Shown here one piece after another: positions 55,116-64,000 of a stretch of DNA of 64,000 nt (its first letter is position 1; each line of letters opens with the position of its first letter). The translations under genes were made by a program, and so were the position numbers. Source of the DNA: Novosphingobium huizhouense (GTDB lineage Bacteria > Pseudomonadota > Alphaproteobacteria > Sphingomonadales > Sphingomonadaceae); contig NZ_JAILXZ010000002.1 in assembly GCF_020179475.1 (NCBI RefSeq), positions 620,001-684,000 of the forward strand, in the 5' to 3' direction. The notes below the pieces were generated by a model, which saw nothing but the letters and a program-made list of their open reading frames with translations, was not told the origin of the DNA and searched no databases.

Positions 55116-55739
55116 TCAGTTCTTCGCGCTTGCCGCCGGGGCCACTGCCGCGGGCGCGGCGACACTTTCCGCCGCCGGAACGGCCGCGGCCTTGTCGACC
55201 AGCGACCCCGTGACGAGTCGGGGCGCATCGCCCGGGACCGTGAAGTGGAGCGGTTCGACCGTGTGCGCGCGCAACTGTTCGCCGTTGACGATCGTTGCCG
55301 AACGGCCGGTGACGAACGCCGAGAACACCCCCACGGCGACAGCGGCGCCAACGGTCGCGCCGGTATTGCCCTCACCCTCCTGGCGGTAGGATCCGGTCAA
55401 GGGGATGCGGCGCCCGGCGAAATCGAGGTAATCGAACGACACTTCCATCTTGCCCGACTTGCCGAACGCCCCCTTGTTGGTGAGGAACGTCACCGTCCCT
55501 TCGCCCGAGGTGCCCTTGGGAATGAGGACATAGCCGTCCTGCATCACGTCGAACATCGTCGAAAGACGGAACTTCGCGCCCTCCTTCAGCTTCTTGCCCT
55601 TGGAGGTCAGCGTGTCGTTGGGCGTGACCACCACTTCCGCATTGGGCGCAAGCACGACTTCGCGCAGCGTGGCCTGCGGATCTTGCGCAAAAGCAGCCGA
55701 CGGCAGAACAGCAAGCGCCAGCGCAACAAAATACTTCAT
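55116..55739 (-). CDS. Hypothetical exported protein with glycine-zipper segment
   Basis: A 207-residue protein with signal peptide MKYFVALALAVLPSAAFA-QD. The mature part is strand-rich (EVVLAPNAEVVVTPNDTLTSKGKKL, DGYVLIPKGTSGEGTVTFLTNKGAFGKSG). A glycine-zipper-like hydrophobic stretch, NTGATVGAAVAVGVFSAFVTG, could insert in the outer membrane. The C terminus is Ala/Pro-rich. The ribosome site AAAAGGGGGG is strong. It lies 139 nt downstream of the CHAT gene on the same strand, so it might be co-transcribed. An AT-rich palindrome TTCCTTTTAAAGGAA (55827-55841) in the gap suggests a separate promoter. Function unknown. Confidence 0.75.
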   Translation of the reverse strand: MKYFVALALAVLPSAAFAQDPQATLREVVLAPNAEVVVTPNDTLTSKGKKLKEGAKFRLSTMFDVMQDGYVLIPKGTSGEGTVTFLTNKGAFGKSGKMEVSFDYLDFAGRRIPLTGSYRQEGEGNTGATVGAAVAVGVFSAFVTGRSATIVNGEQLRAHTVEPLHFTVPGDAPRLVTGSLVDKAAAVPAAESVAAPAAVAPAASAKN

Positions 55740-55878: not shown

Positions 55879-58800
55879 TCAGCGCGACGCCTGGGTGGGC
55901 GAAGGCTGTGCGCCTTGAAGCAGCGGCTTCGCGCCGTCGCCCAGAATGATGAACGCGGCCCAGTAGAACGGGTGCGAGGTGTTGGCATCGTCCATCAGCT
56001 TGCCCTGCGCTTCCTCGAGCGCCTGCGCCAACGGTTCGCCCGGCCTTGCACCGACGACACCGCCGATCAGGCGCTTGGTCGCGTCGAAGTCGTCGGGCAC
56101 GGGCCAATGGCTGGCGATCACCGAGCGCGCGCCCGCGCCGACGAAGGCGCGGACCAGGCCATCGAGCGCATAGTTGCCGCCGGTGGTGACGCCCGCCTCC
56201 CGGCTGGCCGCCACGGTCGCCATGCCGGCGGTGTCGCAGGCCGACAGGATGACGAGGTCGGCATCGAGCTTGAGGTCGAATATCTCGCGGAAGCTGAGCA
56301 AGCCATCCGAGCCCTGGTCGCCGAAGCTGGTGACCAGCGCGGGCCGCGCCGGGCAATCGGCGCGCGGCGCGGTGACGAGGCCGTGCGTCGCGAAGTGCAG
56401 CACCCGGTACTGGTCGAGCGTCTTGTCCGAGAGCAGCGCCGAATCGCTGAACGTGGCGTCGGTGCGCACGTCGCTCGCTCCGCCGATCGTCTGGCGCGCG
56501 AAGACCAGTTCGTCGGCCGCGATCGGACGTTGCCAGGTGACCAGCGGCCAGTCGCACTCGTCCGCCACGGCCGCGACCGGACGGAATGCCGGGACCGCAT
56601 TGTGGCCGAGCCCGAGGTAGGGCCGCGGCGCGTGCGAAGGCGAGAGCTTGCGCAAATCGAGGAAACCGCGCGGGGAAACCGCGATCGAAATTTCGCGACC
56701 GCGCGCCAGCCAGGCGATGCCGGTGAAGTCGAAGGCATCGGCATCGGACGACCTGGTGCGCTTCTTGTAGGCGGCGATGCCCTTGTCGTCGGTGACCAGC
56801 ACCGAGGGCGGCAATTGCAGCATCGCGGCGTCGGGTTCGAACACGAGGTGCTTCACCGCCGGCAACTGCGCGTCGATCGCCCCGAACAGCGTGCGATAGA
56901 GCGCGCGCGAGCGGTCGAGGTCGAACGGATAGTTCACCTGCTTGCCGTTCTCGACCTTGACGATCGAATCGCGGATCGCCTGAACCTCGTCGGCAAGCTT
57001 GTTGCGGTCGAGGTCGAGGCGGAAGGTCTGCGCGCCATCGGGCTTCGCGAACAGCGCGTAGAGGCTGTCGCCCGCCGCGATCAGCTTGTAGTAGGCCTCG
57101 CCCGGGCGCAGCGCCTGCTGCAATTCGCCCAGCGTGACCCGCTGCGGGGCGAGCACGTTGTAGCGCGGATAGGCGGCAAGCTTGCTGACCAGTTCGGTCT
57201 GGTCGCGCTGGAGCGACGCCAGCGTCTCCCGTGCCGCGGACAGGGCGGTTTGTTCCTGCGGGGTCGGCGCGGGCAAGGCGGCCAGCCGCGTCACCTCGGC
57301 ATCGGTGCGCGCGATGTCGCGGCTGCGGGTCACCGACAGGCGAAACAGCGCGGCGGCATCGTCGTTGCCTTCGGACAGTTCGCGCGCCAGCACCGCCTGG
57401 GTCTGCGCGACGCCGGGGCGCTGGAGGACTTGCGCAGCGGTGAACATCGCGGCGGCGCTGGCCGCATCGCCGTCACGGGCCAGCAGGCCGAAGTAGGGCG
57501 AGAGCATCTCGCGCAGGATCGTCCCGCTGTCGCTGACCAGCGCGCTCTGCTCGATCACGCTGGCGTAGAGCGCCTTGGCCCCCGCGGCATCGCCGCTGCG
57601 GCCAAGGAACGCCGCCTTGCGCGCCTGCGCCGCGAGCAGCGCGGGCGATTGCGGGAACGCTGCGGCAAGCGTGGCGATGGCGCGATCGAAGTCGACCCCG
57701 GCTTCGCCCTTGCGGCCTTGCGCCTCGTTGAGCAGCGCCTGCTCGATCTGGATTTCCGAGCGCATCCACCCGGTCGAATCGACGCGCCCGCCGCGCACCG
57801 CGGCGAGCCGGCGATCGGCTTCGGCAAGCTTGGCGAGAGCTTCGGCATAGCGGCCCTTGAGCCGCTCGGCCGTGCCCGACAGCGCCACGCCCTGCGCATC
57901 GAGGATCTCGGCGCGTTCGGCCGGGGTGAGCCCCGGATCTGCGCCGCCCAGCCGCAGCAGGGTATCGTTCTCGCGGTTGATCTGCTCGGCGAGCGGCAGG
58001 TTGATTTCGCCCATCGCCAGCTTGTCGCGGTCGAAGGTGACGCTTACCGGCGGCACCGGCTTGGCGAGCTGCGCCAGCGCCGCATCGGGCTTCTTCTGGT
58101 TGAGCAGGTCGATCGCGCGGTAGTTGCGCAGCCGCCGCTGGGTCACTCCGTCGCCAGCGCCGAGCGTGGCCTGCGATTGCTCGAACAGGCGCTGCGCCGC
58201 GGCGAAGTTGCCGAGGTTCGACTGCTGCAGGCCCTGGTTTGCCAGCGCTTCGGAAAGGTCCTGCGGATCGGCGGCGCGGTCGCGGCTGGCGAGCGCTTCG
58301 AAGAACTCGGCGGATTCGGCGAAGCTGCCGCCATTGTTGCGCAGGTAGCCTTCATCGCGCGCGCCCGACTGGTCGAGTTGCCCCGCCTGGACGCGGGCGA
58401 AGGCGGCAGGGTCGGACACTTCGGTGCTGGCGACGCGGATCTCGCCCGGCACCGGGCGGTCGGTCGCGACGCTCGCCAGCGCGAGCCGCAGCGCCGGGTC
58501 GTAGCCGGCGAGCCCTTCGACGAAGTAGCTTACCCCGCCGCGCCTGACGAGGTAGCGGCGATAGTCGACCCGCGAGCGCGGGTCCTTGCAGGCAAGGCTT
58601 TGCACCGCCCCCAACCCGTCGAGCGTCGCCGCGCCCGGCTCGGCGCACTCAAGCGTGACGCCCGGCAGCGCGCTGGGTTCGGTTGCCGGCACGACGTCGC
58701 GCCGCACCGCGATCAGCGAGCCGACCGCGCCCGCCGCGTCGCGGCAGGTGAGCCGGTAGGAGCGATCGAACATGCCGCCGAGGCGCGCATCGACCGGAGC

Positions 58801-58941
58801 GTTCTGCGCGGTGCACATCACCCCCGACGAGCCGATGCGGAACGAGTTGCGGATCGACAGCGGCGGCGCCTTGGCCTCGGTGATCCCCGGCAGGGTGAGC
58901 GCGAGCGCGGCAAGGCTCGCCCCGATCAGTCGCGCGCGCAT
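55879..58941 (-). CDS. Exported TPR-CHAT domain protein
   Basis: A 1020-residue protein with signal peptide MRARLIGASLAALALTLPGITEA. The mature N-terminal region (about residues 30-180) contains several cysteines. A helical TPR-like region follows (about 200-560, e.g. LSEALANQGLQQSNLGNFAAAQRLFEQ). The C-terminal CHAT caspase-like domain (about 690-1005) has both catalytic residues: His853 in VLHFATHGLV and Cys902 in VILSACDTAGM, followed by FVGAGARSVIASHWPVPD. Such domains are cysteine proteases of the caspase/separase clan; most known prokaryotic ones are cytoplasmic, so export is notable. Its ATG overlaps the upstream exoprotein stop (TGATG), so the pair is translationally coupled. It may process or sense that exoprotein. 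Confidence 0.88.
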   Translation of the reverse strand: MRARLIGASLAALALTLPGITEAKAPPLSIRNSFRIGSSGVMCTAQNAPVDARLGGMFDRSYRLTCRDAAGAVGSLIAVRRDVVPATEPSALPGVTLECAEPGAATLDGLGAVQSLACKDPRSRVDYRRYLVRRGGVSYFVEGLAGYDPALRLALASVATDRPVPGEIRVASTEVSDPAAFARVQAGQLDQSGARDEGYLRNNGGSFAESAEFFEALASRDRAADPQDLSEALANQGLQQSNLGNFAAAQRLFEQSQATLGAGDGVTQRRLRNYRAIDLLNQKKPDAALAQLAKPVPPVSVTFDRDKLAMGEINLPLAEQINRENDTLLRLGGADPGLTPAERAEILDAQGVALSGTAERLKGRYAEALAKLAEADRRLAAVRGGRVDSTGWMRSEIQIEQALLNEAQGRKGEAGVDFDRAIATLAAAFPQSPALLAAQARKAAFLGRSGDAAGAKALYASVIEQSALVSDSGTILREMLSPYFGLLARDGDAASAAAMFTAAQVLQRPGVAQTQAVLARELSEGNDDAAALFRLSVTRSRDIARTDAEVTRLAALPAPTPQEQTALSAARETLASLQRDQTELVSKLAAYPRYNVLAPQRVTLGELQQALRPGEAYYKLIAAGDSLYALFAKPDGAQTFRLDLDRNKLADEVQAIRDSIVKVENGKQVNYPFDLDRSRALYRTLFGAIDAQLPAVKHLVFEPDAAMLQLPPSVLVTDDKGIAAYKKRTRSSDADAFDFTGIAWLARGREISIAVSPRGFLDLRKLSPSHAPRPYLGLGHNAVPAFRPVAAVADECDWPLVTWQRPIAADELVFARQTIGGASDVRTDATFSDSALLSDKTLDQYRVLHFATHGLVTAPRADCPARPALVTSFGDQGSDGLLSFREIFDLKLDADLVILSACDTAGMATVAASREAGVTTGGNYALDGLVRAFVGAGARSVIASHWPVPDDFDATKRLIGGVVGARPGEPLAQALEEAQGKLMDDANTSHPFYWAAFIILGDGAKPLLQGAQPSPTQASR

Positions 58942-61900
58942 CACTGTCCTCCCTCGGCGGTGTTCTCGTTGACCGGCGAGCCCATCAGCGCCGGGTTGCC
59001 GCTGCCCGCGACGGGTTCCTCGATGCGGCCGGGCGGGTTGAGCGGGCGCATGTCGATCAGCGGGGTGGGCGGGACGATCGGCGGCCCGGCCGCATCGTTC
59101 GCCGCGTCCTTCTGCTCATCCGAGGGCTGCTCGCCATCGGCATCGGGAGTGGGAGTGAACCCGGGCGTGTTGCCGAGATCGTTCTGGCCGAGGATCTCGA
59201 TCTGGTTGGAGATCGTCGGTCCCGCGATCTCGACGGGAATCTCCGGCTCCTCGACCGGCGTCGTCACCTTGCCGCAAGTGGTTGCGGCGATCAGGCAACC
59301 GTTGACCTGGCTGTCGGTGCCGAAGAACTGGATCTGGCTGTGGTTCTGGCCGAAGGCGGTGAAGGCATCCTTGCCGGCGAGGATCTTGCCGCTGCCGTCG
59401 AGGAAGCTGCCGCTGACGATCATCCGCACCGGGAAGGTGCCGAGCGGAACGATGCGGAAGCCGTCGGCGGCGGTGACGAAGCCCGCGGGCGCATCGACGG
59501 TGCCGGTGTTCTGGACGTAGAAGCTGCGCCCCACGGTGAAGTCGAACCCGCCCGCGGCGAGCACCCCGTCGGGCCGCTGGACCGCCGTCGGGCGCGCCAG
59601 ATCGGCGACGAGACCGGTATAGGCGATGTCCTGCGCGAGCTTGTCGAGGATCGTCCCCTCGGCGACATGGATGCCCGCGGCGGTGATCCGCAGGGTGCCC
59701 GAGAGCGCCTGACCGCTGCCGGTGATCGCGAGCGAGCCGGTCGCAGCGTCCAGCTCGAAGCGGCCGGTGGCGAACTCGAGCGCGTTGGTGGCAAGGAAGC
59801 CCCGCGCGGCGACATTGCCGAGGATGCGGATGCCGCCCGAGATCTGCCCTGCGTCGTTGACCGTCTCGAACCGGACGCTGCCGTTGGGATCGTCGATCGT
59901 GCTCCCGGACTGCGGCCCGGTGATGGCGAGATTGCCGATGCGGATATCGGCAGCGCCCGCGCCATCGAGCGCGCGCACGGTGAGCGAGCCACTGCGGATC
60001 AGCGCCCATTCGGGTGCGCTGAGGTTCCACTCGGTGTAACCGAAGCCATCGCCCAGGGTGACGCCGTTCTGGCTCAACGAGCGCAGCAGGATCGTGCCGC
60101 TGGCGCCCGCATCGAGCCCGAGCGGCTCGCCGTCGAGCGAAGCGGTGTTGATCGCGATCGCGGTCGACGCGACGGTGATCGAAGGCGCCGCCCAGCGCGC
60201 GTTGACGAGCGCAAGACCGCCGCTGTCGACCATGATCGACTGGCTCGCGTCGATCTGGCCGAGCGTGGCGCCGCCGGCCGAGGCCGAGGCGAACCGTCCA
60301 CCCGAAGCTTGGGTGATCTGGATCGTTCCACCGGTGCGCACGGGCGACGGCGCCGAAGCCAGCGCGGCGACGTCGTAGGCGCCGGCCTCGACCGTGTTGA
60401 TGACCGTTGCCGATCCGCCGACCAGGATGCGCCCCTGTCCGGCGACGATCGCGCCGGTCTCGGGATCGATCTGCCCGGAGACAAGCTCGCTCGCCACCAC
60501 GTTGCCGCCGGCGAGCAGGGCCATGTCGCGCCCGATGACCTGGCCAAGCGACAGCCCGCCTTGCGCGACCAGCGCGATATCGGTCTTCGCCGCGACCAGC
60601 CCCGCCGTCAGATCCCCGAGCGAACGGACCTGGATGCCGTCCGCCTGGCTGAACAGGCTCGAGAACGTGGCGTTGCCCGCGACGTTGGCGGTCACCGGGC
60701 CGTAGGCGGTCACCGCCTGGAACCCGGCATTGCCGCCCGAGCGCAGCGTGATCGCCCCGTCGGCCGCGAACAGGCCGAGCCCGCCCAGCGCGCCGCCGGC
60801 ATCGAGGGTGATATCGCCGGTCGATGCCGTCACCGCGCCGAGCGTCGCGGTGGTCGCCGCGTTCGCGCTCACCCCGGCCTGCGCCAGGAGGTCGGCGGTG
60901 AGCAGCGAACCGCCCGAGCGCAGGTCGATCGCCCCCCCTGCGGTCAGCGCGCCCAGCTGGACCGCGCCCGCGGTGCTCTCGACGGTGACGTCGGTATCGG
61001 CGGTCATCGTGGCGGCGGTGATCGCCCCCGTGGCGAACAGGCCGATCGAGCCGATCGACGAGGCGAGGTCGGACAGCGACAGGCTGCCGCCCTGCGCGCG
61101 AATGGCGATGTCGTCCTGCGTGGCGATGGTCCCCGCCACGATGGCGCCGGGCGCCGTCAGGTCGAGCCCGCCGCCGGTTGCGGTTACCTGCCCGAGCTCG
61201 ATGCCGCCGCTGGTGGTTGTGATCGCAATCGCCCCGCCGGCCCGGACCGCGCCCGCCTGGACCCCGCCTACGGGTCCCGGCCCCGGGGGAACCGGGCCGA
61301 GAACCGATTCACGCGCGGTGCTGACATCGCCGCCGGCGGCAATCGTCAGATCGGCGCCCGCGGTGAGCCCACGCGTCAGCACGCCGCCGGTCGCGGTCAG
61401 CGAGAGCGCGCCGCCGCTGGTCACGCTGCCGAGCAGGAGCGGCCCCGCCGCGCCCACCGTCACCGTGCTCCCGGAAAGGTCTTCGGTGACGACCCGATCC
61501 GTGCGCGAGAGCACCGTGAGCGCCCCGCCCGCGGCGAGGGAACCGGTCGTGACCGTCCCATGCCCGTCGAGATCGATCGCGCCGCCGAGAGCTTCGACAT
61601 TGCCGAGGCCGATCGTGCCGGCCGTGCTGGTCGCCGAAACGCCGCCCGCCGCCTGGACCGCCGGGCTGGTCAGGGCGCCGCCCGGGATTGCGATGTCGCC
61701 CACCGCGCGCAAGATGATGTCGCCGCCGCTGGCGATGTCGACGAGGCTCAGCGTGCTCGCACTGTCGAGCGTCACCGCGCCCGTCGTCCGCACCGCGCCG
61801 AGCGCGATCGCACCGGTGGAGCTGGTTGCGGAGAAGCTGCCCTCGGCCTGGACCGCCGGGCTGGTCAGGGCGCCGCCCGGGATTGCGATGTCGCCCACCG

Positions 61901-64000
61901 CGCGCAGCGTGACGTCGCCGCCGCTGGCGATGTCGACGAGGCTCAGCGTGCTCGCGCTGTCGAGCGACACCGCGCCCGTCGTCCGCACCGAACCGAGCGC
62001 GATCGCGCCGGGCGAGGTGATGTCGAGCGAGGTTGCGGTGACATCGCCGCCGCTGATGCCGCCCGCAGCAGTGAACACCGCGGCGCCGGCATCGACCGCG
62101 CCACCCAGCGTAAGCGTCCCGGCGGAATCGAGCACCACCGCACCCGTCACGTCGAGCGACTGCAGCGAAAGCGTCTGCGCGGTTGCTGCGGTCAGCGATG
62201 CCGCCGCGATCATACCCGTCGCCCCGATCGCGCCGGTCGCACGGACCGTGCTTGCGGCGAACAGCGCATCGTAGTCGTAGGTCGAGCCGCGCGGCGAGCC
62301 GCCGGCCGCAGCCATCGCGTAATCGGCAATCAGCAGGCGCCCGGTCGCATCCGCTCCGGCGAGGGAAATGTCCCCCCCGGCAAGCAGCGCCCCGTCAACC
62401 GCGTTGACCTGGCCGAGGTCGAGCGTACCGGCGGTGAACAGCCGGGTCGCGCGGGCATCGAGGTTGCCGAGCGTGATCGAGGTGTCGCTCAGCACTGCAA
62501 GCTCGCGCGTCGAACCGGCGCTGCCCGAGGACGCAACGTGGACGTCCTGGCCGGTCAGCGTCCCCGCCGCGCTCAGCGATGCGCGGTCGACGGCATCGAC
62601 CGTGCCGCCGATGGCGAGCTGGCCGCCCGCGCTCACGGTAACGGCATTGCCCGCCGCGATGGCGCCGAGCGCCACGTCGCCGCTGCCGACCACCGAGACC
62701 AGCCCAGTGGCGCCGAGGTTGCCGAGGCTGATCGTGTCGCCCGCGCCGATCAGCAGATCGCCCGAGGCCGAAACGTCGAACAGCCGCACTGCGCCGCTGG
62801 CCGTGATGCTCGTGCCCGTGCCGGCCTTGAACGAGACGTCGCCGATGATGTCGCGGTCGCTGGTGACGGAAAGGTTGTTGGCCACCTCGATCAAGCCGGG
62901 CGCCGTCACGGTCAGGCCGGAAGACACCCAGTTGCCCGCGTGGATCTCGGCATGATCCGCCGTCAGCCGCCCGCTGTCGACCACCACGGTGAGGTCGCCC
63001 GGGGTATCGAACTGGAAGCCGGAGGCTACCGTAACCGTGCCGTTCTGCACGCTGATCGGCGCCGCGAAGTTGCCGGGCTGCACGGTGCCGCTCGCGTAGA
63101 ATTGCAGCGAGCGCGCAGACACGTCGCTGTTGCGCACGGTCAGCTCGACCGGTTCGCCGAGCGCGGTGGCGACGCCGTTGACCGTGCCGAAGCCCTGCGT
63201 CGCGGTGGCGGCGAAGGTCAGGTCCTGTGCATCGAGCGAACCGCGCTGCGCATCGAGCAGATAGCGGCTGGTCACCAGCAGGTGCGCGCCATCGGCGGTA
63301 TCCGCTCCGTTGGGGGAATCGGCCGGGACGCCGACGGTGGCGTCGCCGCCGTTGCCCTGGGTGCTGCCGAGGCCACCGCTGCCGCCCACCGCGCTTGCGT
63401 CGAAATAGCCTGCGCCGCTGAGCGAGACGTTCGCGCCGCGCACCAGCAGGGTCGCACCGCCGCCGACGCCATTGCCGCCATTGCCGCCCGCGCCGTCGCC
63501 AAGCCCGCCGATGCCGCCGCTGCCGCCATTTCCTGCGGCGCCGAGCGCATAGGCCGAAATCGTGCCGAACCGCGCGTAGCCCTGGTTGAGCGCACCGGTA
63601 TCGTTCCCGCTCTGCGTGCCGACCTGGATGGTGCCGCCCAGGCCGTCGCCGCCGCGCCCGCCCAGGCCCCCGGCCGTGCTGTCGTTGTCGCCGCCGTTGC
63701 CGCCGACACCGCCAGCGCCTTGCGCGCTGAGGACCGCGGTATCGATGATCAGCGCGCCGTTCCCGGCGCTGCCGAGCACCGCGACGCTGCCGCCGAGCCC
63801 GTCGCCGCCGCGCCCGCCGATGCCGTCGACGCCCGTGCCGTTGCGCGCGGTGCCGCCGGTGCCGCCGAAGCTCTGCGCCAGCACGGTTGCCGATCCGATC
63901 GTGATCTTGGCGCTGCCGGCGAGATCGCTCTGCGACGAGATGATCGCCGCCCCGGCGGTGGCGCTTCCGCCCACGCCGCCGTCGCGCCCCGCACCGCCCA
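58941..64000 (-). CDS. Giant filamentous-haemagglutinin-like exoprotein (partial, N terminus beyond window)
   Basis: The frame is open to the window edge, giving at least 1686 residues; the true start is to the right. The visible part nearest the N terminus is extremely Gly-rich (GGVGGNGGDNDSTAGGLGGRGG-type). The rest is a long series of beta-strand turns (ITLDSAST, VTLRAVGDIAI, SLQSLDVTGAV), consistent with a right-handed beta-helix of the TpsA/FHA kind. A C-terminal block has a Cys pair (NGCLIAATTCG) and ends in a Pro-rich tail, IDMRPLNPPG...ENTAEGGQ. No autotransporter beta-barrel is present, so two-partner secretion is likely, with the TpsB gene outside the window. Two 65-residue repeats are almost identical. 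Confidence 0.85.
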   Translation of the reverse strand, partial: GGAGRDGGVGGSATAGAAIISSQSDLAGSAKITIGSATVLAQSFGGTGGTARNGTGVDGIGGRGGDGLGGSVAVLGSAGNGALIIDTAVLSAQGAGGVGGNGGDNDSTAGGLGGRGGDGLGGTIQVGTQSGNDTGALNQGYARFGTISAYALGAAGNGGSGGIGGLGDGAGGNGGNGVGGGATLLVRGANVSLSGAGYFDASAVGGSGGLGSTQGNGGDATVGVPADSPNGADTADGAHLLVTSRYLLDAQRGSLDAQDLTFAATATQGFGTVNGVATALGEPVELTVRNSDVSARSLQFYASGTVQPGNFAAPISVQNGTVTVASGFQFDTPGDLTVVVDSGRLTADHAEIHAGNWVSSGLTVTAPGLIEVANNLSVTSDRDIIGDVSFKAGTGTSITASGAVRLFDVSASGDLLIGAGDTISLGNLGATGLVSVVGSGDVALGAIAAGNAVTVSAGGQLAIGGTVDAVDRASLSAAGTLTGQDVHVASSGSAGSTRELAVLSDTSITLGNLDARATRLFTAGTLDLGQVNAVDGALLAGGDISLAGADATGRLLIADYAMAAAGGSPRGSTYDYDALFAASTVRATGAIGATGMIAAASLTAATAQTLSLQSLDVTGAVVLDSAGTLTLGGAVDAGAAVFTAAGGISGGDVTATSLDITSPGAIALGSVRTTGAVSLDSASTLSLVDIASGGDVTLRAVGDIAIPGGALTSPAVQAEGSFSATSSTGAIALGAVRTTGAVTLDSASTLSLVDIASGGDIILRAVGDIAIPGGALTSPAVQAAGGVSATSTAGTIGLGNVEALGGAIDLDGHGTVTTGSLAAGGALTVLSRTDRVVTEDLSGSTVTVGAAGPLLLGSVTSGGALSLTATGGVLTRGLTAGADLTIAAGGDVSTARESVLGPVPPGPGPVGGVQAGAVRAGGAIAITTTSGGIELGQVTATGGGLDLTAPGAIVAGTIATQDDIAIRAQGGSLSLSDLASSIGSIGLFATGAITAATMTADTDVTVESTAGAVQLGALTAGGAIDLRSGGSLLTADLLAQAGVSANAATTATLGAVTASTGDITLDAGGALGGLGLFAADGAITLRSGGNAGFQAVTAYGPVTANVAGNATFSSLFSQADGIQVRSLGDLTAGLVAAKTDIALVAQGGLSLGQVIGRDMALLAGGNVVASELVSGQIDPETGAIVAGQGRILVGGSATVINTVEAGAYDVAALASAPSPVRTGGTIQITQASGGRFASASAGGATLGQIDASQSIMVDSGGLALVNARWAAPSITVASTAIAINTASLDGEPLGLDAGASGTILLRSLSQNGVTLGDGFGYTEWNLSAPEWALIRSGSLTVRALDGAGAADIRIGNLAITGPQSGSTIDDPNGSVRFETVNDAGQISGGIRILGNVAARGFLATNALEFATGRFELDAATGSLAITGSGQALSGTLRITAAGIHVAEGTILDKLAQDIAYTGLVADLARPTAVQRPDGVLAAGGFDFTVGRSFYVQNTGTVDAPAGFVTAADGFRIVPLGTFPVRMIVSGSFLDGSGKILAGKDAFTAFGQNHSQIQFFGTDSQVNGCLIAATTCGKVTTPVEEPEIPVEIAGPTISNQIEILGQNDLGNTPGFTPTPDADGEQPSDEQKDAANDAAGPPIVPPTPLIDMRPLNPPGRIEEPVAGSGNPALMGSPVNENTAEGGQ
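61651..62040 (-). repeat. Two near-identical 195-bp tandem repeats in the exoprotein gene
   Basis: Copies at about 61651-61845 and 61846-62040 start at the same motif GCCTGGACCGCCGGGCTGG and differ at only a few positions until close to the end of the second copy. Each encodes 65 residues containing LDSASTLSLVDIASGGD and IAIPGGALTSPAVQA. The exact 65-codon period keeps the beta-helix register and indicates a recent duplication. Confidence 0.85.

What the first reader, a model, noticed from the sequence alone, without database searches (positions are those of the whole stretch)
55879..64000. Signal-peptide-bearing TPR-CHAT protease translationally coupled to a giant TpsA-like exoprotein
A CHAT (caspase-like) protein with both catalytic residues visible (His853, Cys902) carries an N-terminal signal peptide, and its start codon overlaps the stop of a very large Gly-rich beta-helical exoprotein by one base. 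Known bacterial CHAT proteases with assigned roles act inside cells. Here the protease appears destined for the periplasm or cell surface with a partner exoprotein made from the same mRNA. A plausible role is proteolytic maturation, release or contact-dependent activation of the exoprotein. The small exported glycine-zipper protein downstream may belong to the same unit. Function is inference; the coupling and domains are seen in sequence.
Basis: partly seen in the sequence, partly recalled or inferred. Interest (0 to 1): 0.7.

Follow-up and report, generated by a model that had tools for sequence, protein, structure and literature searches.

The report
Exported CHAT protease for tagged exoprotein
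Many alphaproteobacteria make, from one operon, a giant surface protein, the pore that exports it, and an exported caspase-like protease, and the giant protein ends in a short conserved tag that goes with the protease gene, so the protease probably trims or releases it.

Summary
Beyond the window the exoprotein is complete (3054 aa, Sec signal, N-terminal TPS secretion domain) and is preceded by its TpsB pore. TpsB-TpsA and TpsA-CHAT both overlap by TGATG. The CHAT protein has a signal peptide, an intact His853/Cys902 dyad, and six further cysteines invariant in 57 of 57 aligned homologues. The pairing is conserved: 81 of 86 close CHAT homologues in 199 family genomes have TpsB within 30 kb, all on the same strand, in two gene orders; one order adds a CHASE2 cyclase. 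Distant homologues in other families of the class are often TPS-linked too (16 of 20 loci). New here: TpsA proteins beside CHAT carry, after a beta-helix and a cysteine pair, a disordered tail with a short motif near GN-[PED]-x-L-W, median 29 aa from the C-terminus. A profile trained on 42 tails scores 38 of 48 other CHAT-linked tails above threshold and 0 of 11 TpsAs whose TpsB lacks CHAT. Most likely the motif presents the pore-stalled periplasmic tail to the TPR-CHAT protease, which processes or releases TpsA, as LapG does for CdrA. Cleavage itself is inferred. The small downstream protein does not belong.

The parts
55879..58941 (-). exported TPR-CHAT protease (1020 aa from ATG; GTG at 58944 possible): signal peptide, N-terminal beta domain about 33-144, TPR region, CHAT 678-1003
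   Evidence: Pfam CHAT 1.1e-58; His853/Cys902 and 7 Cys invariant in 57 of 57 aligned rows; AF2 model pLDDT 81, pTM 0.78; fold matches Csx29 and separase
58941..64000 (-). C-terminal part of the TpsA exoprotein; the gene continues beyond the window to its ATG at 68105 (3054 aa), and the TpsB (ShlB/FhaC) pore gene follows outside the window at 68105-69880 in continued numbering (L003:4105-5880)
   Evidence: TpsA; TPS domain on the extension. TpsB: Pfam ShlB 5.3e-13 and POTRA_2 1.1e-07; its stop overlaps the TpsA ATG as TGATG
59274..59297 (-). cysteine pair of TpsA (C2937 and C2944, C-x6-C) at the end of the beta-helix
   Evidence: last confident stretch of the model
58983..59021 (-). C-terminal motif of TpsA, EEPVAGSGNPALM (aa 3029-3041), in a disordered tail
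58939..58943 (-). TGATG overlap of TpsA stop and CHAT start
   Evidence: in 41 named rows the nearest CHAT start lies on the TpsA stop as TGATG/TAATG in 7 and as NTGA in 28

Best explanation
This is a three-partner form of two-partner (type Vb) secretion. Shown: a TpsB pore, a 3054-aa TpsA exoprotein and an exported TPR-CHAT cysteine protease are encoded in one overlapping operon, and CHAT-linked TpsAs carry a short C-terminal motif (near GN-[PED]-x-L-W) in a tail behind a cysteine pair; the tail is predicted disordered. Inferred: TpsA passes N-terminus first through TpsB. A disulfide loop formed by the cysteine pair stalls the end of the beta-helix in the pore, as in HMW1, HxuA and CdrA, leaving a tail of about 110 aa in the periplasm. 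The motif docks this tail on the TPR-CHAT protein, which cuts TpsA near its C-terminus to release or mature it. Where a CHASE2-cyclase is in the same cluster, it probably links the state of the system to cAMP.
For: Operon and overlaps. Pairing: 81 of 86 CHAT places of 200 bits or more have TpsB within 30 kb, 81 of 81 on the same strand (chance about 2% each, rough); 70 of 72 TpsBs of 400 bits or more have CHAT. Two gene orders; in a tree of 66 chosen CHATs the 60 TPS-linked ones lie apart from 6 without TPS neighbours. TPS domain: profile matches HxuA 4i84 at 1.8e-08; Pfam TPS in 12 of 22, NCBIfam adhes_NPXG in 22 of 22. Motif: PSSM on tails not used for training, 38 of 48 above threshold, 35 of 48 above the best of 450 shuffled tails (9.3 bits), controls 0 of 11, best of 775 body windows 6.8; strict regex 72 of 90 against 1 of 11 and 2 of 775. 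In 42 TpsA C-termini (last 380 aa) the motif P, G, N and L (39, 39, 36, 36 rows) and both Cys (38, 37) are about as conserved as the best columns of the beta-helix (40) although the tail around them varies. Tail disordered in the model. Contrasts: L089 (CHAT) has an extra tail with a motif read by eye, its TPS relative L140 (no CHAT, 373 bits) ends at the Cys pair; genome G147 has one TpsA of each kind. Export: signal peptides in 53 of 57 and 20 of 21 rows as I set the starts, lipobox-like N-termini in L089 and L102; seven Cys invariant in 57 of 57. His and Cys kept in 80 of 80 readable rows. Fold: Csx29 Z 27.6, separase Z 24.2; Csx29 cleaves Csx30, bound through its C-terminal domain (PMC10028731 passages). 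Precedents for a pore-locking disulfide anchor and for LapG cutting CdrA: PMC5422565.
Against: No cleavage is shown. In 42 of 90 tails (the training type) the motif Asn is followed by Pro, a poor scissile bond, so the motif may be a docking site and not the cut site. The motif lies C-terminal to the Cys pair, so a cut at the motif alone would not free TpsA. Only 11 of 20 control loci gave a readable TpsA tail; these come from few lineages and are mostly distant in the TPS domain. 10 of 48 tails score below threshold: one non-cognate TpsA, one frameshifted, and eight cognate ones, among them L089, L090 and L091, whose motif I assign by eye only. Loose forms of the motif also occur in 3 to 6 of 11 controls. 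Pfam TPS does not match the window's own TpsA; TIGR01901 hits it below cut-off. One genome on a single contig (G127) has CHAT without a neighbouring TpsB.
Confidence: 0.62

Rival explanations
1. The CHAT protein is a docking anchor or secretion factor, not a processing enzyme: its TPR region holds the motif and tethers TpsA through the TpsB pore, and catalysis is secondary.
For: TPR regions commonly bind short peptides, and the fold matches include peptide-bound Rap and NprR; a GN-P bond is an unlikely cut site.
Against: His and Cys kept in 80 of 80 readable rows, including divergent clades; the CHAT fold is kept.
Confidence: 0.2
2. The motif is read by another factor (TpsB or a general periplasmic protein) and CHAT acts on something else; the two only travel together.
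For: Only co-occurrence is shown; some lineages also keep a CHASE2-cyclase in the cluster.
Against: The 11 TpsAs that could be read beside CHAT-less TpsBs of 200-400 bits lack the motif by PSSM, including L140, the TPS relative of L089.
Confidence: 0.12
3. Polymorphic toxin or CDI-like system in which CHAT releases a C-terminal toxin from TpsA.
For: Large TpsA protein with a variable tail; proteolytic release of CdiA C-termini has been proposed (PMC5422565 passage).
Against: In the window's TpsA the tail is a disordered Pro/acidic linker without a Pfam domain, and TpsA overlaps CHAT by one base, leaving no immunity gene between them.
Confidence: 0.03

Closest known systems
LapG-CdrA of Pseudomonas aeruginosa (periplasmic protease acting on the C-terminal tail of a TpsA adhesin)
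   Same: A periplasmic protease acts on the pore-held C-terminal tail of a TPS exoprotein with a cysteine hook; link to cyclic-nucleotide signalling (PMC5422565, PMC7616799)
   Different: [quoted passage not shown] here the protease is encoded in the operon and TpsA bears a motif that goes with it; the cyclase is a CHASE2 class III enzyme and not c-di-GMP machinery
Craspase TPR-CHAT protease Csx29 and its substrate Csx30
   Same: TPR plus CHAT fold (Z 27.6), His/Cys dyad, substrate bound by its C-terminal domain; candidate partner encoded beside it here
   Different: [quoted passage not shown] here the protein is exported, has six extra invariant cysteines and an N-terminal beta domain, and sits with TPS genes
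HMW1/HxuA-type TPS with disulfide-locked C-terminal anchor
   Same: TPS domain, TpsB partner, Cys pair after the beta-helix
   Different: In 7 of 11 CHAT-less controls the last Cys pair lies within 41 aa of the end (in the other four at 64-79 aa); CHAT-linked TpsAs mostly have it about 110 aa from the end and add the motif
C-terminal sorting systems (LPXTG/sortase, PEP-CTERM/exosortase; recalled)
   Same: Short conserved C-terminal tag paired with a dedicated exported cysteine peptidase
   Different: No hydrophobic helix or basic cluster seen after the motif in the tails read; transpeptidation untested

Membership tests
Two-partner secretion (type Vb), TpsA | Sec signal plus N-terminal TPS domain | tested here: met
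   Profile of 22 domains matches HxuA TPS (4i84, 1.8e-08); NCBIfam adhes_NPXG 22 of 22, Pfam TPS 12 of 22. The window's own copy alone stays below the curated cut-offs
Two-partner secretion (type Vb), TpsA | long beta-helix | tested here: inconclusive
   AF2 model of the last 380 aa is strand-rich and confident up to the Cys pair; no fold search was made with it
Two-partner secretion (type Vb), TpsB | POTRA plus ShlB/FhaC barrel gene next to TpsA | tested here: met
   ShlB 5.3e-13, POTRA_2 1.1e-07, overlapping TpsA
CHAT / clan CD peptidases | CHAT fold with His-Cys dyad | tested here: met
   Pfam 1.1e-58; dyad in 80 of 80 readable rows; separase 5fc2_B Z 24.2, rmsd 3.5, 314 aligned
CHAT / clan CD peptidases | proteolytic activity | not testable with these tools
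   needs biochemistry
Craspase Csx29 | TPR-CHAT fold | tested here: met
   7y9x_B Z 27.6, rmsd 8.2, 489 aligned
Craspase Csx29 | association with Cas7-11 and Csx30 | not tested
   no cas search was run; the neighbours are TPS genes
LapG (periplasmic protease of CdrA/LapA) | LapG-family catalytic domain | tested here: not met
   CHAT is the only Pfam family found up to E 0.1
HMW1/CdrA-type cysteine-hook anchor | Cys pair near the TpsA C-terminus | tested here: met
   86 of 90 CHAT-linked rows have at least two Cys in the last 420 aa, the first two 5-9 residues apart
HMW1/CdrA-type cysteine-hook anchor | disulfide that holds TpsA in the pore | not testable with these tools
   needs biochemistry
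PEP-CTERM/LPXTG-type sorting | motif followed by hydrophobic helix and basic cluster | tested here: not met
   by reading the tails and, for the window's TpsA, the model: what follows the motif is short, hydrophilic and disordered
CDI / polymorphic toxin | C-terminal toxin domain plus immunity gene | tested here: not met
   no Pfam domain in 1685 aa; CHAT overlaps TpsA directly

The most novel reading that the evidence does not exclude
A caspase-fold counterpart of sortase: the exported CHAT enzyme recognises the GN-x-x-L-W tag of TpsA, cuts at or near it and joins the new C-terminus to a surface acceptor, and in many lineages a CHASE2-cyclase reads the result, making a tag-processing-signalling system not described before for type Vb secretion.
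Probability: 0.12. Interest if true: 0.88.

Novelty: new variant of a known kind. Interest (0 to 1): 0.72.

Why it matters
A 2017 review states that the genes of the putative proteases that mature TpsA proteins appear not to be part of TPS operons and that several of these proteases are unidentified (PMC5422565 section 9). Here is a conserved family in which the candidate protease is the third gene and the candidate substrate carries a visible tag, so substrate, enzyme and site can be tested directly in harmless environmental bacteria. It would place a caspase/separase-fold protease in the cell envelope with a defined partner, and would give function to proteins now annotated only as 'CHAT domain-containing protein' and 'hypothetical protein'.

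Tried and rejected
Small exported protein as part of the unit: rejected. Toxin/immunity reading: rejected. Loose motif G[NDSK]xx[hydrophobic]x: not discriminating, 41% of 120-aa body windows and 3 of 11 controls hit; only stricter forms and the PSSM separate the sets. Clustering tails at 50% identity left 48 of 67 CHAT-linked against 0 of 4 control clusters (Fisher 0.009), so the control set is small in independent lineages. My first statement that the motif Gly is the only invariant column of the TpsA C-terminus came from 35 rows (own plus 34 of 41 usable named tails); with all 42 rows no column is invariant and the motif columns are only about as conserved as the best beta-helix columns. Plasmid CHATs outside sphingomonads: in the 8 regions with annotation that I viewed no TPS gene is annotated beside CHAT (that annotation is incomplete); Niveispirillum (unannotated) has TpsB, TpsA-like and CHASE2-cyclase ORFs by BLAST. 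LapG-like folds were not listed for the CHAT model, which is no evidence of absence.

Rows dropped or left out: 10 of 100 CHAT-linked tails as duplicates; L049|79 (tail reads out of frame) and TpsAs cut by a locus end were not used; L160|53 (second, non-cognate TpsA) and L181|2 (frameshifted tail) are counted and the Cys count, but dropped. Of 20 control loci 9 gave no complete TpsA. Of 80 named CHAT loci, 64 gave a full protein under my start rule and 56 of these were aligned with the window's.

Full report
1. What is there. The window lies at G000:C22:620001-684000. I took the next 20 kb (L003) and read on in window numbering. On the minus strand the order is TpsB (first ATG 69880, stop ends 68105), TpsA (68105-58941, 3054 aa), CHAT (58941-55879, 1020 aa). 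Both junctions read TGATG, so each downstream start shares one base with the upstream stop. TpsB matches ShlB (5.3e-13) and POTRA_2 (1.1e-07); the gene upstream of it is secA, 178 bp away.

2. TpsA is a TPS exoprotein. Its own N-terminus does not reach the Pfam TPS or TIGR01901 cut-offs. An alignment of 22 homologous N-termini matches the solved TPS domain of HxuA (4i84, E 1.8e-08; 4rm6, 8.7e-07). Of its 22 members, 12 match Pfam TPS and 22 match NCBIfam adhes_NPXG, counted at E 0.1.

3. The CHAT protein is an exported TPR-CHAT protein. Pfam finds CHAT at 678-1003. An AF2 model from 57 sequences has pLDDT 81.4 and pTM 0.78, with a beta domain at about 33-144, helical repeats, and the CHAT region. 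VIA-align gives Csx29 (7y9x_B, Z 27.6, rmsd 8.2, 489 aligned) and separase (5fc2_B, Z 24.2, rmsd 3.5, 314 aligned). His853 and Cys902 are kept in 80 of 80 readable rows of an 81-row set that also includes CHATs without TPS neighbours. The protein has seven Cys: 43, 66, 99, 118, 796, 863 and the catalytic 902. All seven are invariant in 57 of 57 rows, the window's and 56 named ones. In a more divergent set of 21, six are invariant and Cys863 is nearly so. Six cysteines besides the catalytic one fit disulfides in an oxidising compartment (inference). A simple hydrophobic-plus-AxA test finds signal peptides in 53 of 57 and 20 of 21 rows; the misses are rows whose start I set at an ATG inside or near the hydrophobic stretch, or whose stretch falls just short. 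Three N-termini match a lipobox pattern, of which L089 and L102 look real.

4. The pairing is conserved. Of 199 family genomes, 90 have a CHAT match at 1e-10 and 107 a TpsB match. Among 86 CHAT places of 200 bits or more, 81 have a TpsB (200 bits or more) within 30 kb, all 81 on the same strand. The five without are in G127 (one contig), G116, G176, G190 and G156 (drafts of 230 to 420 contigs). Of 72 TpsBs of 400 bits or more, 70 have CHAT; of 26 between 200 and 400 bits, 12 do. Two gene orders are common: TpsB-TpsA-CHAT, as here, and CHAT - CHASE2 class III cyclase - small gene - TpsB - TpsA (annotated example in Sphingobium herbicidovorans). In the 80 best named loci, from Novosphingobium, Erythrobacter, Blastomonas, Sphingomonas, Sphingopyxis and others, a cyclase of this kind is seen in 25, one of them on the opposite strand. 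In 41 named rows with a complete TpsA end (one of them, L233, with TpsA downstream of CHAT), the nearest CHAT start is on the TpsA stop as TGATG/TAATG in 7 and as NTGA in 28; five more lie within 13 bases. The window's genome has a cyclase 51% identical over 682 aa to the operonic one, but elsewhere. In a tree of 66 chosen CHAT proteins all 60 TPS-linked ones fall on one side (support 100) of 6 without TPS neighbours.

5. It is seen beyond the family. In 385 genomes of the class, 25 have a CHAT match at 1e-40; in 398 of the phylum, 12 at 1e-30, all within the class. I fetched 20 of the distant places: 15 have a TpsA-like ORF beside CHAT (TpsB is also in the fetched stretch in 12 of the 15) and one more has a TpsB. 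The other four (L275, L283, L288, L290) show neither; three of them lie on contigs under 25 kb. TpsA calls here rest on BLAST of 50 bits or more without composition correction, so adjacency to TpsB matters. Among 20 weaker CHATs within the family four are TPS-linked (L094, L095, L096, L102); beside the other 16 no TPS gene was found.

6. The motif. Reading the TpsA C-termini beside CHAT showed a short conserved stretch in otherwise variable tails: EEPVAGSGNPALM here, DEPVTGAGNDDLW in the second gene order, NPLIGRGNEGLI or ELITGATNEALW in distant family members, and GVAGAGNESLW, WGNEALWQ (end of protein) or SNTGKDTLW in other families. In 42 aligned C-termini of 380 aa, the motif P, G, N and L are kept in 39, 39, 36 and 36 rows and the two Cys in 38 and 37; the best columns of the beta-helix reach 40 (35-row version).

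7. Tests of the motif. Controls: of 20 loci with a TpsB but no CHAT, 11 gave a readable TpsA C-terminus. Strict pattern P[VIL][TSAVIL][GS]xG[ND] in the last 260 aa: 72 of 90 CHAT-linked tails, 1 of 11 controls (a PIVSLGN unlike the rest), 2 of 775 body windows. A 13-column PSSM trained on 42 tails of the GNP type, tested on the other 48: 38 above 1.95 bits (the higher of the two 99% values of body windows and shuffled tails) and 35 above the best of 450 shuffled tails (9.3); best body window 6.8; controls 0 of 11, best -3.1. The ten below are L081, L089, L090, L091, L102, L211, L212, L233, the non-cognate L160|53 and the frameshifted L181|2. Median distance of the motif from the C-terminus, among tails above threshold, is 29 aa (IQR 27-33). 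GN[PEDSTA]x[LF]x in the last 260 aa: 66 of 88 family tails, 9 of 16 distant-class tails, 0 of 11 controls, 36 of 708 body windows. Looser patterns do not discriminate. The control set is small and mostly more distant in the TPS domain, so part of the contrast could be ancestry. Against that: L140 (no CHAT) shares a TPS domain at 373 bits with L089 (CHAT), yet L140 ends 2-9 aa after its last two Cys while L089 adds a tail with FDPLVGTNNEGLF, a motif form that I assign by eye since it scores below the PSSM threshold; genome G147 has both kinds.

8. Architecture of the end of TpsA. A Cys pair lies about 110 aa from the C-terminus (118 and 111 here). 86 of 90 CHAT-linked rows have at least two Cys in the last 420 aa, the first two 5-9 residues apart. 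In 7 of 11 controls the last pair lies within 41 aa of the end, in the other four 64-79 aa from it. The AF2 model of the last 380 aa is confident up to the Cys pair and then low in confidence and without secondary structure to the end. [quoted passage not shown] CdrA is held by a cysteine hook (PMC7616799 passages).

9. Mechanism, with likelihoods. Functional unit of the three proteins: about 0.95. Motif recognised by the CHAT protein: about 0.75. Proteolytic processing or release of TpsA at its C-terminal end: 0.62. Sortase-like transfer: 0.12. Shown are gene order, domains, export signals by sequence, motif and its association; inferred are docking, cleavage, pore stalling and the role of the cyclase. 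A difficulty: the motif is C-terminal to the Cys pair and often contains Asn-Pro, so it may be the docking site while the cut is elsewhere.

10. Known or new. Searches of the open PMC library for CHAT with TPS, export or CHASE2 terms, and for TPS in Sphingomonas, showed in their listings no paper joining the two. Of the papers listed there I opened only PMC5422565 (passages and section 9) and PMC2853523 (passages); one search showed 25 of 237, and subscription papers are mostly not held. For Csx29 I read passages of PMC10028731. The parts are known kinds; the operon-borne exported CHAT protease with a matching C-terminal tag on TpsA is, as far as these searches show, a new variant.

Noticed in passing
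C-termini of TpsA in L114 (ends 14739) and L115 (ends 11434): In some second-order TpsAs the motif is followed by several degenerate copies (VTGTRNENLDE and the like), as if the tag had been duplicated.
   Followed up: no
G000:C11:199894-200775 (L238): The window's genome has a CHASE2-cyclase 51% identical to the operonic cyclases of relatives, but far from the TPS operon.
   Followed up: partly
G000:C22:592436-593431: A second TpsB-like gene in the same contig as the window, away from the one CHAT gene; its TpsA would be an internal control but could not be fetched.
   Followed up: no
L097-L101, L103-L113: Further CHAT proteins of the family, several with signal-peptide-like N-termini, with no TPS gene found beside them; their partners are unknown.
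   Followed up: no
L160:13268-19756: A second TpsA directly downstream of CHAT that lacks the motif.
   Followed up: partly
L049 and L132 (G114): A CHAT gene between two TpsA genes; the downstream one has the motif IDTPVISSGNSSLW.
   Followed up: no
L245, L244, L243 (cyanobacterial plasmids): CHASE2 protein, DUF1822 and CHAT genes lie close together, with DUF928 in Picosynechococcus, which resembles the CHAT-CHASE2 link seen here without annotated TPS genes.
   Followed up: no
L236 (Pseudosulfitobacter plasmid): Caspase family protein, serine protease, two hypothetical proteins and a CHAT protein in a row on an 82-kb plasmid; 46 Pseudosulfitobacter plasmid records match.
   Followed up: no
window 55116-55739: Small exported protein behind CHAT with no Pfam or NCBIfam match up to E 0.1; it is not linked to the operon in the relatives examined.
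   Followed up: yes
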